A stretch of 64,000 bases of DNA, from positions 1-64,000 of the forward strand of contig JAFYOS010000020.1 in assembly GCA_017560125.1 (NCBI GenBank), in the 5' to 3' direction. The stretch comes from Bacteroidaceae bacterium (GTDB lineage: Bacteria; Bacteroidota; Bacteroidia; Bacteroidales; Bacteroidaceae). A program made the translations under genes and the position numbers. The stretch's first letter is position 1. The number at the start of each line of letters is the position of its first letter. Below, piece after piece: positions 26,755 to 33,697 of this stretch. The notes beneath the pieces are model-generated. The model made no database searches and was not told the DNA's origin. It saw only the letters and a program-made list of their open reading frames with translations.

Positions 26755-28026
<1,272 letters not shown>

Positions 28027-28217
28027 CTAATTGCAAAATCGTTAGACAACCGTGATAACCCGTCACCCACTCTATCGAAATAAAGCCATGCGCACTCGAC
28101 GGGTTATCCGGTTGCATATAGAACACCAAAGAAATATTTTGGTTCGCAAAAAACATTAAATATTTAATCAGTAGCAATCTTTTTCTCTCTCTTCAACATA
28201 AATCCATTTTATTTAGC

Positions 28218-28225
28218 TATTTTTG
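28218..28225 (+). promoter_or_regulatory. -7 element for the CHASE2/CHAT operon
   Basis: TATTTTTG is a full match to TAnnTTTG, 22 bases before the first ATG of the island. No clear TTTG lies at the -33 position, so the promoter may be weak or need an activator. Confidence 0.5.
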
Positions 28226-28247
28226 TGAAAATTAAATCATTCATACA

Positions 28248-28859
28248 ATGAAAAAAATATACTATATTTTCATTCTCTTCATAATATTTTCAACAGGAAC
28301 TGTTAGTGCGCAAAAAATGAAAATAATCCGTTGCACGACACCTACCATCATAATAAATGGAGAAAAGCTAACCATTGGAGATACATTTGACAAGAATTCT
28401 AAAATTTCGTGGATATCTTCAAAGCAGGTTTTAATAGCCAAAGACCCCAATGGGTATATGGTACGCTATACATCATCACAAGAAACAGAAAAAAGCACTT
28501 TTTTCACATCGGTTCTGAATACACAATATAAAGAATTATCGTCAAGAGATTTCGACACAAATGGCATTGATGGTAAATACATTATAGACAAACAACTTAT
28601 TTTACCAACAGGCCTCAATGCTGATACAAAATACACCGTAGAATTACATTACACAATCGATGGCAAAGAGAACATCTACAAAGCTAAATTATCAGCAGAC
28701 AACAGCACAATGATTATAAAGAAAAAAATATTCAATAATAAATACAAAGAAACCATCAAAGCTCGAATTATCGCATACGACAAGAAGAGCAATCAAGAAA
28801 TCCTATTATCGAACAACATTGAATTCATTCATATAGAAAGAGCAATCATCCCAGACTAA
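28248..28859 (+). CDS. Small secreted hypothetical protein of the CHASE2/CHAT island
   Basis: 203 residues with a signal peptide (cleavage near SAQ, residue 22). The mature protein looks beta-rich, and no family is recognised. The middle part (VELHYTIDGKENIYKAKL) has an immunoglobulin-like look. The gene is AT-rich like the two that follow, 6 bases upstream of the CHASE2 gene, and it probably supplies a periplasmic or surface component of the same system. Confidence 0.75.
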   Translation: MKKIYYIFILFIIFSTGTVSAQKMKIIRCTTPTIIINGEKLTIGDTFDKNSKISWISSKQVLIAKDPNGYMVRYTSSQETEKSTFFTSVLNTQYKELSSRDFDTNGIDGKYIIDKQLILPTGLNADTKYTVELHYTIDGKENIYKAKLSADNSTMIIKKKIFNNKYKETIKARIIAYDKKSNQEILLSNNIEFIHIERAIIPD

Positions 28860-28865
28860 TATTTT

Positions 28866-30077
28866 ATGAAAATAAACTATTACAAAAGATACATTTTTAT
28901 TACTTTCTATTCACTTGCTACAGCAATAATACTCCTTTTGGTTTCGTATATAGCTACAAACATCGGAGTATCGTTTAGCGGCGAAACAGATATTATAGGA
29001 AAAAGTAATTATTATCTAAAAAGAGTAATATCAAAAAACAATCCTATCCCCGACTCGCTGTTATTTGTAAATATAAGCTACGACAAGCAATTAACAGATA
29101 TTTACGACGAGGATGGATTCAAGTTGGGATGCATAGACATCACTAATCGTCAATCATTGCTACATTTTCTGGATATTCTGTCGCATCGCAACGATTATAA
29201 ATTTGTGACACTCGATGTACGTTTCGAAAAAGGCATAGAAACCGAATACGATTCTATGCTTTATGCCCGTATTGCATCTATGGAACGAATAGCAATTCCG
29301 GCGACACACAATTCACAAACGACATACGAAAATAGCCTTAAGAACAAAACCCGTCTATCAGATTACATCACAACATTTTTCAGTAACAACTATCATAAAT
29401 TCGAAATAGAAAGAGATGGGATGGAATCTATTCCCTACTTTATGTATAAAAGCATCAACAACAACAAGCACTCATCATATGGCATTTTTCATTTCGACAA
29501 CGGCGAACTATGTAACCGCACACTTTTCACATATCCACACATAATACCCGACGGGTTATACGCCCAAGATGGCAGTAGAAACTATTACAATTTAGAAAGC
29601 GATTTGCTAATAGACGAAGAGGCCTTGTTAAATGACAATTTACTTGCCAATAAATACATTTTCATTGGCGACATGGTATTAAACGACAACCACGAAACAA
29701 CCATGGGCAATATGCCTGGTTGCACAATAATAGCCAATGCATTTATTTCATTCATGCACAGACAGCATGTAATACCATTTACCGTAATAATGATACTTTT
29801 TATAATATATTTCGTTTTTGCATACCAGATATACAGCCGCAAATCAATCTATGCAATCATCGTCGAGTGGAGAAATAAAAAAAATAAAAAGAATTTTCCT
29901 ATTATAGGCATTATTTTATCGTGGTTCACATACTCTTTTACACTATCGGCTGTATGCTTGATATTCTACTACACCTGCGGCATAGCATACGACATTTTAA
30001 TCACAGCCACATTGATACAACTAATCGATTATATAGTTGCTCATAGTTCGCATACAACAAACCTCGAACAAGCATAA
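28866..30077 (+). CDS. CHASE2-domain membrane protein
   Basis: 403 residues: one N-terminal membrane helix (about 9-33), an extracytoplasmic domain of about 265 residues, then three C-terminal helices (about 301-322, 344-366 and 372-393) and a short tail. The outer domain has CHASE2 features: SLLFVNISYDKQL near its start, VTLDVRFEKGIETEYD, and KYIFIGDMVLNDNHETTMG followed by PGCTIIANAF, matching the usual IGxTxxGxxDxxxTP-xxPGVxxHA region in degenerate form. CHASE2 is a ligand-sensing domain normally joined to a kinase, cyclase or other output; here no output domain follows, so signalling would have to pass to a partner, probably the CHAT protein 23 bases downstream. Confidence 0.75.
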   Translation: MKINYYKRYIFITFYSLATAIILLLVSYIATNIGVSFSGETDIIGKSNYYLKRVISKNNPIPDSLLFVNISYDKQLTDIYDEDGFKLGCIDITNRQSLLHFLDILSHRNDYKFVTLDVRFEKGIETEYDSMLYARIASMERIAIPATHNSQTTYENSLKNKTRLSDYITTFFSNNYHKFEIERDGMESIPYFMYKSINNNKHSSYGIFHFDNGELCNRTLFTYPHIIPDGLYAQDGSRNYYNLESDLLIDEEALLNDNLLANKYIFIGDMVLNDNHETTMGNMPGCTIIANAFISFMHRQHVIPFTVIMILFIIYFVFAYQIYSRKSIYAIIVEWRNKKNKKNFPIIGIILSWFTYSFTLSAVCLIFYYTCGIAYDILITATLIQLIDYIVAHSSHTTNLEQA

Positions 30078-30100
30078 CACAAAAACAGCAATCCACGACA

Positions 30101-33100
30101 ATGAAAAAACTATTATTAGCACTACTGCTTGTATTGCCATTGGTTTCAATAGGCCAAAAGATACAAAACAGCCAAATATCAACAGCAGACTCATTGTGCA
30201 ATGCAGCAAAAGGTTTGTTCGAAAAAAAGCAGCTAGAAGAAGCCATAGAACTATATACAAAAAGCGATATAATATACAGGAGGGAATTAAAAGACGACGA
30301 TACCCTACGCCTCAGAGCAACCAAAAACATAGTACAGTGTTATATCGAATATTCAAAAGTAGAAAGAGAAAAGGGTAATATTGGAAAGGCTACAGAACTT
30401 ATCAATAAAGCCGAAAAAATACAAATAGAAAATTTCGGTAAAAAAAATCAAATTTACTCCGACATTCTCACTAGTAAAGGCCACATAAGCATTAGCGAGA
30501 AAAAATACGACAATGCTATAAACTATGGAACAGAGGCTGCTAATATCTGTAAATCGCTCTATGGAAAGAACAATGAAAAGTACGCAAAAAAGCTCTATTT
30601 TTTAGCATATTTTCATTCATCCGCAGGAAATTCGGATGAAAATATAAAATATGGCGAAGCGGCAATTGCCGCTTTTCGCGGAGCTAAAGATAGAAACGAA
30701 TTGAATTATGCATGGGCATTGAACAACCAAGCCATTGCATATCTAAACAAAGGATTACCACTGAAAGCAGCCGAACTTATTAAAGAGGCCGTGCCTATTT
30801 TCAGAGAAAAGAAAGAAGAAAAAGACACAACATACGCAAAAATAATAAATAATGCTGCTGTAATATATGCAGCAGTCAAAAACAATAAAGAAGCTGTGAG
30901 CCTAGGAGAAGAGGCACTTAACATCGCAAACAAAACAAAAAAATATGATAGTTATATCTATTTTAAGTGTATAAACGATTTAGCAGTCTTCTACTCCAAT
31001 TTAGGAAATGAAAAAAAGGCCATTAAATTATTGACATCACATCTGGATACCTTTAAAAAACAATATGGCAAACAACATCCACGATTAATAACTATAAGAA
31101 ATAATTTAGCAACATTTTACAGCGAAAGCGGAGATTACATCAGTGCATTGGGGTTATATAATAAAAATTTAAAATACTATATAGATTCCAAGACATATGA
31201 CAATGTAGGATATGCCCTATGTTTAACAAATATGGCCACCTGCATGCAAAAATTAGGAGATATCCATACTGCATTTAAATTCACAGAAGAAGCTGAAATT
31301 ATATATAGAAAACATTTAGGAATAGAGCATCCTAATTACATCTCTCTATCAATGAATCTGGCAGGATATTACAACGCACTCGGTAATACCCCCAAAGCCA
31401 TTGAAATAATTACAGATATAGAACCTGTTGTAAAAAAAGTGCATGGAGAAAATTCATTTACCTATTTATGGCTTATCAACGACCTTGCAAGCTATTACAG
31501 CTATATAGCAAACCATAAAACCGCCATTAAAATCTTCCAAAAAGGTATATCAAATGCCCAAAAAACCTTAAATGAAAACAAGGTATTACATGCTGTAATG
31601 CTCAACAACCTTGCTGGTTTTCACAACAGCAACGGCAACACCAAAGAGGCCATAAAAATATCAAAAGATGTACTATCCATAAGAAAAAACATATTGGGAG
31701 AAAAACATCCCGACTATGCACTTACATTAAACAACATCGGAAGCTATTACTATGAAATAGGTGATATTGAAAAAGCATTGGATTATTTCGCCGATGCATT
31801 ACTAATACAATCAAAGACATCTATAATCGACTACGTAAATACGCTAGAAAATATTGCACGATGTTTTTTCGATATTGGTAAGATAACAACCGCCATAGGA
31901 TACACAAAAGATGTGTTAAAGAATAAGAGCAAGATCTATGGAAAGAAACATAAAGAATACGCCAATAGCCTATTCAATCTGTCTTCGTATAGTTTAGCAG
32001 CAGGTGACACCACTAACGCCACATCTGTTTTTCTCGAGTTATTTGATATACGTTCAAATATAATACGCGAATACTTCTCTGGAATAACAGCCAGAGAGCG
32101 TGAGATTTATTGGCAAGAGAATGCTACTTTTTTCGAGGAAGATATGCCATTTATAGCACACTATCTAGGACATCAAAAGCTTATAAATGCAGCCTACGAT
32201 GCATCGCTTCTGACCAAAGGCGTGCTACTGAACACCGAGCTTTCGATGGATAAGCTTCTGCAAGAAAGCGGAGATAGTACAATTATCGCACAATATAGTA
32301 AATTAAAAGAACAACGCTCCCTACTTAACAGATATTACAATATCCCTATTGCAAATAGAAAAATCAACACCGATTCATTGGAGCAATCCATAAACAAACA
32401 GGAACGACAACTGATAAAAAGTTCTAAAATTTATGGCGATTACACACACAACATGTCTATAACATGGAAAGAGATACAAAAAAATCTTGCCGACAATGAT
32501 ATAGCCATTGAATTCAAGCAATTCGAAATACACTCATTAAAAGATATTCAATATGTTGCCTTTATATTAAAAAAAGAGTACTCTTCACCAAAAATGATTG
32601 CTCTTTTTACACAGAAAGAGCTAGACAACATCAAAGAAACAGCCATATATAACAGCGATTGCCTAAGCAAAAAAATATGGGGAGTCCTCGCACCAGAACT
32701 GCAAGGTGTAAATAATATTTATTTCGCTCCCGACGGAGGGCTTCACCGCATTGCAATAGAAACATTGCCATTCGAAAATCAGTACATAAACGACAAATAC
32801 AACCTTTATCGCCTATCCTCCACACGCCAATTAGCTATTAAGCAAGAAAAAACAAGCATTAAGAATATTGCCTTGTATGGTGGTCTGTTATACGACGCAG
32901 ACACATTGGATTTGGCACAAGAAAATAGAAAATACACAGCAACAAGAAGCGACAACCCCAACCACATCTCCCCCATTACACTGCGCGGGAACGCGTCCTA
33001 TCTGCCATCGACACAATACGAAGTTGATACAATAAACACCCTACTAAAACAAACAAATAAAATCACAGTAGAGTGTTACACGGGAATAAAAGGAACCGAA

Positions 33101-33697
33101 GAATCGCTAAAATCACTCAGCGGGAAAGATATAAACCTGCTCCATATAGCAACACATGGTTTTTATTGGAGTCCCGAGAAGGCACATTGGATGAAGCACG
33201 ACAAAGCATTCCTCAATCAAAACGACAATACAAGCATCGAAGACAAAGCGCTAAGTCGTTCGGGATTATTATTATCTGGAGCTAACCATGCACTTAATGG
33301 CACTATGATGCAAACAATAAACGATGGCATACTAACAGCCAAAGAGCTTGCCAATATAGATTTTCGCAAATTAAGATTAGCAGTGCTCTCAGCCTGCCAA
33401 ACCGGTTTAGGCGATATCACCGGTGAGGGTGTATTCGGTTTACAACGAGGCTTCAAGAAAGCCGGAGCTAAGACACTGCTCATGACCCTATGGAAAGTAG
33501 ATGACAAAGCAACCTCCCTTTTGATGAGCGAATTTTACCGCAATCTTGTATCGGGTGAAAGCACTTACAACGCACTCGGCAAGGCACAGAAATACCTTCG
33601 CAACTACGAAATCGAAACAAACGATGCAAATGGAAAGAGAAAAATATACTCAGACCCACACTATTGGGCGGCATTCATTTTACTTGATGCCAACTAA
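30101..33697 (+). CDS. Exported TPR-CHAT (caspase-like) protein
   Basis: 1198 residues with a signal peptide (MKKLLLALLLVLPLVSIGQ), so the whole protein should be outside the cytoplasm. Residues of about 30-650 are tetratricopeptide repeats, many with the 42-residue kinesin-light-chain spacing (LGxxHPxYxxxxNNLAxxY patterns). The C-terminal 320 residues are a CHAT domain: ALYGGLLY, then LLHIATHGFY with His1019 and LAVLSACQTGLG with Cys1099, the expected catalytic pair, followed by EGVFGLQRGF, LMTLWKVDD and a terminal DPHYWAAFIL. CHAT proteins are separase/caspase-related peptidases. Substrate unknown; AT-rich and grouped with the CHASE2 gene. Confidence 0.88.
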   Translation: MKKLLLALLLVLPLVSIGQKIQNSQISTADSLCNAAKGLFEKKQLEEAIELYTKSDIIYRRELKDDDTLRLRATKNIVQCYIEYSKVEREKGNIGKATELINKAEKIQIENFGKKNQIYSDILTSKGHISISEKKYDNAINYGTEAANICKSLYGKNNEKYAKKLYFLAYFHSSAGNSDENIKYGEAAIAAFRGAKDRNELNYAWALNNQAIAYLNKGLPLKAAELIKEAVPIFREKKEEKDTTYAKIINNAAVIYAAVKNNKEAVSLGEEALNIANKTKKYDSYIYFKCINDLAVFYSNLGNEKKAIKLLTSHLDTFKKQYGKQHPRLITIRNNLATFYSESGDYISALGLYNKNLKYYIDSKTYDNVGYALCLTNMATCMQKLGDIHTAFKFTEEAEIIYRKHLGIEHPNYISLSMNLAGYYNALGNTPKAIEIITDIEPVVKKVHGENSFTYLWLINDLASYYSYIANHKTAIKIFQKGISNAQKTLNENKVLHAVMLNNLAGFHNSNGNTKEAIKISKDVLSIRKNILGEKHPDYALTLNNIGSYYYEIGDIEKALDYFADALLIQSKTSIIDYVNTLENIARCFFDIGKITTAIGYTKDVLKNKSKIYGKKHKEYANSLFNLSSYSLAAGDTTNATSVFLELFDIRSNIIREYFSGITAREREIYWQENATFFEEDMPFIAHYLGHQKLINAAYDASLLTKGVLLNTELSMDKLLQESGDSTIIAQYSKLKEQRSLLNRYYNIPIANRKINTDSLEQSINKQERQLIKSSKIYGDYTHNMSITWKEIQKNLADNDIAIEFKQFEIHSLKDIQYVAFILKKEYSSPKMIALFTQKELDNIKETAIYNSDCLSKKIWGVLAPELQGVNNIYFAPDGGLHRIAIETLPFENQYINDKYNLYRLSSTRQLAIKQEKTSIKNIALYGGLLYDADTLDLAQENRKYTATRSDNPNHISPITLRGNASYLPSTQYEVDTINTLLKQTNKITVECYTGIKGTEESLKSLSGKDINLLHIATHGFYWSPEKAHWMKHDKAFLNQNDNTSIEDKALSRSGLLLSGANHALNGTMMQTINDGILTAKELANIDFRKLRLAVLSACQTGLGDITGEGVFGLQRGFKKAGAKTLLMTLWKVDDKATSLLMSEFYRNLVSGESTYNALGKAQKYLRNYEIETNDANGKRKIYSDPHYWAAFILLDAN

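What the first reader, a model, noticed from the sequence alone, without database searches (positions are those of the whole stretch)
28248..33697. AT-rich three-gene island: secreted protein, CHASE2 membrane sensor and exported TPR-CHAT peptidase
Seen: three tightly spaced genes (gaps of 6 and 23 bases), markedly AT-richer than both flanks (enolase, pepT); a CHASE2-type outer domain with no kinase or cyclase attached; a CHAT domain with His1019 and Cys1099 intact behind about 600 residues of TPR and a signal peptide. Known: CHAT peptidases (separase/caspase clan) act in regulated cell-death and defence systems such as the type III-E CRISPR TPR-CHAT, but those are cytoplasmic. Inference: a horizontally acquired envelope system in which CHASE2 senses a ligand and the TPR-CHAT protein cleaves a periplasmic or surface target, perhaps the 203-residue neighbour.
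Basis: partly seen in the sequence, partly recalled or inferred. Interest (0 to 1): 0.75.

Follow-up and report, generated by a model that had tools for sequence, protein, structure and literature searches.

The report
Exported caspase-like protease with membrane sensor
A gut bacterium carries a three-gene set, recurring in varied form in related bacteria, that pairs a membrane sensor with a caspase-like protein-cutting enzyme apparently placed outside the cytoplasm, which hints at protease signalling in the bacterial cell envelope, though no function has been tested.

Summary
In detail: three + strand genes (28248-33697) encode a secreted 203-aa protein ("SMALL"), a CHASE2-like membrane protein without kinase or cyclase, and an exported TPR-CHAT protein with His1019/Cys1099. 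GC is 0.357 against 0.484 outside.

It is a recurring module. Of 26 confirmed loci found by CHASE2 alone (28 matches, 2 dropped), 24 have SMALL in the same gene run and 14 have a CHAT or C14 caspase there. In L089 a SMALL-like domain is fused to a caspase beside CHASE2. The peptidase's scaffold varies (TPR, WD40, Sel1).

A sister species has the three genes between the same neighbours, on two contigs, at 60-64% identity, so this is no one-off arrival.

Best reading: an envelope module in which CHASE2 and SMALL control an exported clan-CD endopeptidase. Co-occurrence is shown; activity, ligand, substrate and complex are inferred. The recorded caspase-CHASE2 fusion is predicted to hold its caspase in the cytoplasm. 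No paper in the held library has both 'CHASE2' and 'CHAT domain'.

The parts
28021..28247 (.). intergenic stretch between divergent enolase and the island, GC 0.335; probable promoter region
   Evidence: promoter scan gave no excess over shuffles, so inference only
28248..28859 (+). SMALL: 203-aa exported protein, signal peptide about residues 1-21 then Gln22; N-terminal beta domain (22-75) and C-terminal beta-sandwich (about 114-198)
   Evidence: relatives beside CHASE2; cleavage point judged by eye
28866..30077 (+). CHASE2-like inner-membrane protein, 403 aa, no cytoplasmic output domain found
28950..29768 (+). predicted extracytoplasmic CHASE2 domain (residues 29-301) between the first and second hydrophobic segments
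   Evidence: hydropathy (segments at 10-28, 302-320, then 349-391); side of the membrane inferred from the basic loop 321-345
30101..33697 (+). exported TPR-CHAT protein, 1198 aa
30173..32167 (+). TPR superhelix (about residues 25-689 of the model)
32666..33682 (+). CHAT domain, residues 856-1194
33155..33157 (+). codon of His1019 (catalytic candidate)
33395..33397 (+). codon of Cys1099 (catalytic candidate)

Best explanation
The island is one member of a Bacteroidota envelope module. CHASE2 sits in the inner membrane with its sensory domain outside the cytoplasm and has no cytoplasmic enzyme, so it can pass its state on only in or outside the membrane. SMALL is its constant extracytoplasmic partner and links it to the effector. 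The effector is an exported clan-CD endopeptidase on a large protein-binding scaffold (here TPR-CHAT; elsewhere WD40-, Sel1- or TPR-caspase). A CHASE2 ligand or envelope disturbance would change the CHASE2/SMALL complex and switch the latent peptidase on, which then cuts one or a few envelope proteins at specific sites. SHOWN by calls: the three genes, co-occurrence, exchange of the peptidase, fusion of a SMALL-like domain to a caspase, conservation of His/Cys, export-like N-termini, a model with separase/Csx29-like overall shape. INFERRED: the complex, ligand sensing, proteolysis, its target and its benefit.
Against: No activity, interaction or expression data. 12 of the 26 CHASE2 loci have no CHAT or caspase in the gene run, so the pair can do without a linked peptidase. 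CHASE2 relatives are rare in the phylum sample (3 other genomes of 395). On the CHAT tree the CHASE2 link changes 13 times, at least 6 by starred branches: a loose modular link, not one inherited operon. Window CHASE2 is under Pfam's cut-off by itself. Dyad geometry was not measured; the 18 rows above Csx29 cover TPR only, so TPR helices drive much of the match. The crude N-terminal test cannot tell a signal peptide from a membrane anchor. SMALL profiles were seeded with neighbours of CHASE2, so part of the adjacency is by construction.
Confidence: 0.45

Rival explanations
1. Transmembrane gene regulation: the exported TPR-CHAT cuts the outer part of a membrane anti-sigma (or similar) protein encoded elsewhere and so frees a sigma factor; CHASE2/SMALL is only the trigger.
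For: In 13 of 82 CHASE2-free loci an exported CHAT lies within two genes of an ECF sigma and a single-TM protein with a 118-147 aa outer part (TM weak in L079 and L168), on the same or the opposite strand; 8 of the 13 also hold a C14 caspase with a hydrophobic N-terminus. 12 of 14 such sigmas tested (the 13 plus L059's, where no anti-sigma was detected) pass TIGR02937. Csx29, a TPR-CHAT, cuts Csx30, the inhibitor of a sigma factor (PMC10028731, passages).
Against: None of those 13 loci has CHASE2. With the same two profiles no sigma/anti-sigma pair was found in the 46 CHASE2 loci; 4 of them (L078, L091, L152, L184, the first and last being one locus) have sigma hits outside the module's run, in L091 two genes away on the other strand. 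Other sigma or anti-sigma families would be missed. The 8 caspases in these clusters lack the GHG motif that I looked for.
Confidence: 0.2
2. Defence or conflict system: CHASE2/SMALL senses phage or rival attack at the envelope and the peptidase kills or arrests the cell, or acts as T6SS immunity.
For: Patchy distribution (CHASE2 in 2 of 44 genus genomes), AT-rich island, swapped effectors; two CHAT proteins in a Bacteroides fragilis T6SS variable region, one of them apparently transmembrane, were thought likely immunity proteins (PMC11854122, passages); CHASE2 appears on a component of predicted TRADD-N conflict systems (PMC8195603, passages); caspase-type effectors are common in such systems (PMC10907252, passages).
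Against: No PADLOC match at E<=1 for any of the three; the passages I read describe no exported peptidase effector; I ran no dedicated search for defence genes around the loci.
Confidence: 0.17
3. The CHAT protein is a non-proteolytic scaffold or receptor; CHASE2, SMALL and TPR-CHAT form a structural envelope complex.
For: No further gene was seen to be constant in the loci as a substrate candidate (by eye); the TPR part is the larger half.
Against: His/Cys kept in every complete CHAT, and exchange for C14 caspases: in the CHASE2 gene runs these all show both motifs looked for.
Confidence: 0.1
4. Three unrelated accessory genes that travel together by chance.
For: One AT-rich island; many exported TPR-CHATs have other neighbours (61 of 80 loci have no CHASE2 in the run).
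Against:: recurrence in many genomes and a fusion.
Confidence: 0.03

Closest known systems
Type III-E CRISPR TPR-CHAT peptidase Csx29 (Craspase)
   Different: Csx29 works in a complex with Cas7-11 and is switched by target RNA (PMC10028731, passages); here the protein has an export-like N-terminus, sits with CHASE2 and SMALL, and no Cas gene is in the island; no sequence-level match of the CHAT profile to a PDB chain
Caspase-CHASE2 fusion of Trichodesmium erythraeum (metacaspase; PMC3501461 and PMC2853523, passages)
   Different: one protein, caspase predicted in the cytoplasm; here separate genes, exported peptidase, CHAT as well as C14, plus SMALL. A later survey of 98 cyanobacterial sequences found no CHASE2 among them (PMC7475262, passages)
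Metacaspases with an N-terminal helix that may be a signal peptide (46 sequences in PMC3501461, passages)
   Same: caspases possibly outside the cytoplasm, so export of a clan-CD peptidase is not new by itself
   Different: no CHASE2 or SMALL partner in the passages read
LysM/FecR protein + CHASE2 histidine kinase operon of Burkholderia (BiofilmReg; PMC5192318, passages)
   Same: exported protein encoded next to a CHASE2 receptor
   Different: its CHASE2 protein carries a kinase; SMALL does not match FecR (0 of 19 at E<=1)
Nostoc five-gene cluster with two WD40 proteins, a hypothetical, CHASE2 and DUF928 (PMC5587647, passages)
   Same: CHASE2 beside WD40 proteins
   Different: no CHAT or caspase named in the passage
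Separase
   Same: seven best Foldseek hits of the model: helical repeat arm plus caspase-like domain
   Different: eukaryotic; low TM-scores (0.29-0.34 by query length in ranks 1-7)

Membership tests
CHAT peptidases (Pfam PF12770, clan CD) | profile match over the curated cut-off | tested here: met
   179.6 bits against 24
CHAT peptidases (Pfam PF12770, clan CD) | His/Cys dyad at conserved positions | tested here: met
   His1019 and Cys1099 invariant in 49 of 49 rows of A7; 132 of 134 His and 132 of 134 Cys, the rest gaps in fragments or genes cut at locus ends
CHAT peptidases (Pfam PF12770, clan CD) | dyad superposes on active clan-CD structures | tested here: inconclusive
   whole model resembles separase and Csx29; each residue follows a beta strand (1013-1016, 1093-1096); distance not measured
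CHAT peptidases (Pfam PF12770, clan CD) | endopeptidase activity | not testable with these tools
   needs the protein
CHASE2 receptors (PF05226) | profile match over cut-off | tested here: inconclusive
   window 21.2 bits, under 26.3; relatives 9 of 9 (A4) and 6 of 7 (A2) match at E<=0.01
CHASE2 receptors (PF05226) | cytoplasmic kinase, cyclase or other output domain (usual, not strictly defining) | tested here: not met
   no other Pfam family at E<=0.01 in A2 members, and in A4 only PF21835 in 2 of 9 (best 0.0039); window protein only FecCD at 0.28
CHASE2 receptors (PF05226) | one N-terminal and a C-terminal set of membrane helices around an outer domain | tested here: met
   hydrophobic segments at 10-28, 302-320, 349-391 by a plain hydropathy window
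Type III-E Craspase | linked Cas7-11, CRISPR array, Csx30 | tested here: not met
   island holds three genes between enolase and an M20 peptidase; the whole genome was not searched for Cas7-11
FecR-domain proteins (for SMALL) | match to PF04773 | tested here: not met
   0 of 19 SMALL proteins at E<=1
Known defence systems (PADLOC-DB 2023) | any model match at E<=1 | tested here: not met
   0 of 3 proteins
Caspase-CHASE2 fusion (metacaspase) | both domains in one chain, caspase in the cytoplasm | tested here: not met
   separate genes; hydrophobic N-terminus on the peptidase

The most novel reading that the evidence does not exclude
Bacteroidota run caspase-like proteolytic signalling outside the cytoplasm: a constant CHASE2-SMALL sensor pair, or alternatively a sigma/anti-sigma pair, is plugged into exchangeable exported clan-CD endopeptidases (TPR-CHAT, WD40-, Sel1- and TPR-caspases), and the intracellular TPR-CHAT/sigma logic of Craspase is a relative of this envelope logic.
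Probability: 0.3. Interest if true: 0.88.

Novelty: new variant of a known kind. Interest (0 to 1): 0.7.

Why it matters
In the papers I saw, caspase-like peptidases of bacteria are discussed mainly as cytoplasmic death or defence effectors. A recurrent module that puts them outside the cytoplasm beside a CHASE2 receptor would add a compartment and a control mode, give CHASE2 an output other than kinases and cyclases, and offer testable operons (SMALL + CHASE2 + peptidase) in gut and rumen Bacteroidota. The sigma-linked sister clusters make a direct experiment possible: does an exported CHAT cut a membrane anti-sigma factor, as Csx29 cuts Csx30 inside the cell?
Full report
OBSERVATION. Pfam gives CHAT far over its cut-off with TPRs before it, CHASE2 in the second protein below its cut-off, and nothing usable for the first. 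NCBIfam matches only the third protein, all under their cut-offs; PADLOC matches none. The genome (G000, 2.6 Mb, 37 contigs, 98.5% complete, 6.4% contaminated) has this single CHAT match and no C14 match.

IS IT A MODULE? I searched for CHASE2 relatives without regard to neighbours: 8 other genomes of 295 in the order sample, 3 of 395 in the phylum sample, 16 of 102 in the family sample, together 28 matches outside the window. All 28 stretches were fetched. In two (L048, L098; the weakest matches, E 7e-4 and 0.0098) no CHASE2 gene was confirmed and they were dropped. In the other 26, a SMALL gene lies in the same-strand run in 24; CHAT in 8, caspase in 6, either in 14. The two without SMALL are L041 and L089; in L089 a SMALL-like domain forms the N-terminus of the neighbouring caspase (residues 1-107 by profile, E 1e-5 among 5205 ORFs; hhalign probability 88; caspase 133-335 and BspA-type LRRs). 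From the other side, of the 80 closest CHAT loci of the named genome collection 19 hold CHASE2 in the run of a CHAT, while 12 more distant CHAT loci of the order hold it in none. CHAT itself is common: 159 of 295 genomes of the order sample, the own one included. So CHASE2-SMALL is the constant pair and the exported peptidase the frequent, exchangeable third part: TPR-CHAT in the window, L044, L076, L078 and others; WD40-caspase in L045 and L047; Sel1-caspase in L096 and TPR-caspases in L071. In L088 a second, and in L092 the only, SMALL domain heads a long protein (648 and 637 aa); in L088 this protein and a neighbour have transglutaminase-like matches (one under, one just over cut-off), in L092 no family was found. 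Two of 19 SMALLs match DUF4384 weakly (best E 0.0031; the output does not name them), a domain that also sits on a caspase in L045.

HISTORY. On a quick tree of 130 CHAT C-terminal parts, 33 of them CHASE2-linked, the link needs 13 changes and at least 6 by starred branches; shuffled labels need about 30, and 0 of 500 shuffles were as low. One clade of 16 is linked throughout. The window CHAT pairs with L107 (67% identity in the tree's columns). L107 is, by length and gene coordinates, the contig G790:C216 (L102): CHAT then pepT. On another contig of G790, CHASE2 (64%), SMALL (60%) and a divergent enolase (77%) lie in the order of the window, with CHASE2 near the contig end. GC there is 0.345, 0.376 and 0.39 for the three genes and 0.49-0.50 for the flanks. 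CHASE2 is in 2 of 44 genus genomes, G000 and G790; CHAT matches are in 14 of 44, most of them distant, some only to the TPR part. In G792 enolase and pepT stand divergent with 156 bases between and no island, but in the six other genus-mates looked at pepT has other neighbours, so the empty site is weak evidence. AT-richness is not a trait of the family at large. I read this as acquisition before the split of two species, or loss in the others; the calls do not decide.

MECHANISM. CHASE2 here has no cytoplasmic output domain, so the signal has to go through the membrane or the outer side; SMALL and the peptidase both have export-like N-termini. The simplest scheme is ligand - CHASE2 - SMALL - latent peptidase - cleavage of an envelope protein. 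Nothing shows the ligand or the target. An analogy found on the way: in 13 of 82 CHASE2-free loci a CHAT lies within two genes of an ECF sigma and a single-TM anti-sigma-like protein, in 8 of them with a caspase too. 12 of 14 such sigmas tested, the 13 loci's plus L059's, pass TIGR02937. The single-TM proteins have no anti-sigma match in Pfam (4 tested); that name is my inference from position and layout. These are the parts of Craspase (TPR-CHAT, sigma inhibitor, sigma), with the inhibitor in the membrane. It makes regulated proteolysis a likely job of the exported CHATs in general, and suggests that CHASE2-SMALL is an alternative control unit.

LITERATURE. Held library only. CHASE2 with 'CHAT domain': 0 papers. 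CHASE2 with caspase: 7, passages read in five and one section in full of PMC3501461. 'CHAT domain' with Bacteroidetes: 3, passages of one read. CHASE2 with FecR: 3, passages of one read. 'CHASE2 domain': 12, of which 11 were listed; passages read in four of them (include these). 'CHAT domain'/TPR/signal peptide/periplasm, three of four terms: 256, 20 listed, passages of one read. Csx29 catalytic residues: 1, passages read. A loose search held 17,066 papers, 15 listed; from this list only PMC10028731 was opened. None of the passages I read describes an exported CHAT or caspase with CHASE2; PMC3501461 does note 46 metacaspases whose N-terminal helix may be a signal peptide, and PMC11854122 a CHAT protein that appears transmembrane. 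Subscription papers and annotation databases were not searched, so 'not in print' is not claimed beyond these searches.

VERDICT. Observation confirmed, interpretation partly supported and widened. A new variant of a known kind: a caspase-clan peptidase beside a CHASE2 receptor, with the peptidase exported, split from the receptor, exchangeable, and joined by a constant small exported partner.

Noticed in passing
L049, L053, L055, L057, L079, L086, L109, L134, L144, L155, L160, L165, L168: TPR-CHAT within two genes of an ECF sigma and a single-TM anti-sigma-like protein (13 of 82 CHASE2-free loci), with a C14 caspase in 8 of the 13. Looks like a membrane version of the Craspase logic. The 8 caspases lack the GHG motif looked for.
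   Followed up: partly
L088:8896-13407 and L092:10291-13423: CHASE2 loci with a long protein that starts with a SMALL domain; in L088 it and a neighbour have transglutaminase-like matches. Possibly a third kind of effector.
   Followed up: partly
L116, L120, L121, L127, L140, L164: Tandem CHAT genes: five in L116, three in L127 and L164, two in L120 and L121; in L120, L121 and L140 (one CHAT) a 1013-aa caspase lies in front, WD40-type where checked (L120).
   Followed up: no
L101 (G802), beside pepT: A 1252-aa protein and three small neighbours next to pepT look like Cas12a with Cas4, Cas1 and Cas2; recognised by eye from recall, no search run. The surroundings of pepT vary within the genus.
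   Followed up: no
L074:9914-10231 (G701): A 105-aa remnant of a CHAT C-terminus, His part missing, in a genus-mate.
   Followed up: partly
L168: Record titled Lachnospiraceae MAG carries a CHAT that falls among Bacteroidales ones, with sigma and anti-sigma-like genes; may be a misbinned contig.
   Followed up: no
L046:4752-5117: A subtilase-like fragment lies upstream of a SMALL-CHASE2 pair that has no CHAT or caspase in the 5.1 kb contig; recognised by eye only.
   Followed up: no
L111, L112, L117, L119, L124, L125, L133, L150, L156, L161: A recurrent 377-397 aa protein with an export-like N-terminus, alike by eye, lies just upstream of the CHAT or up to two genes further; no profile or structure was made.
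   Followed up: no
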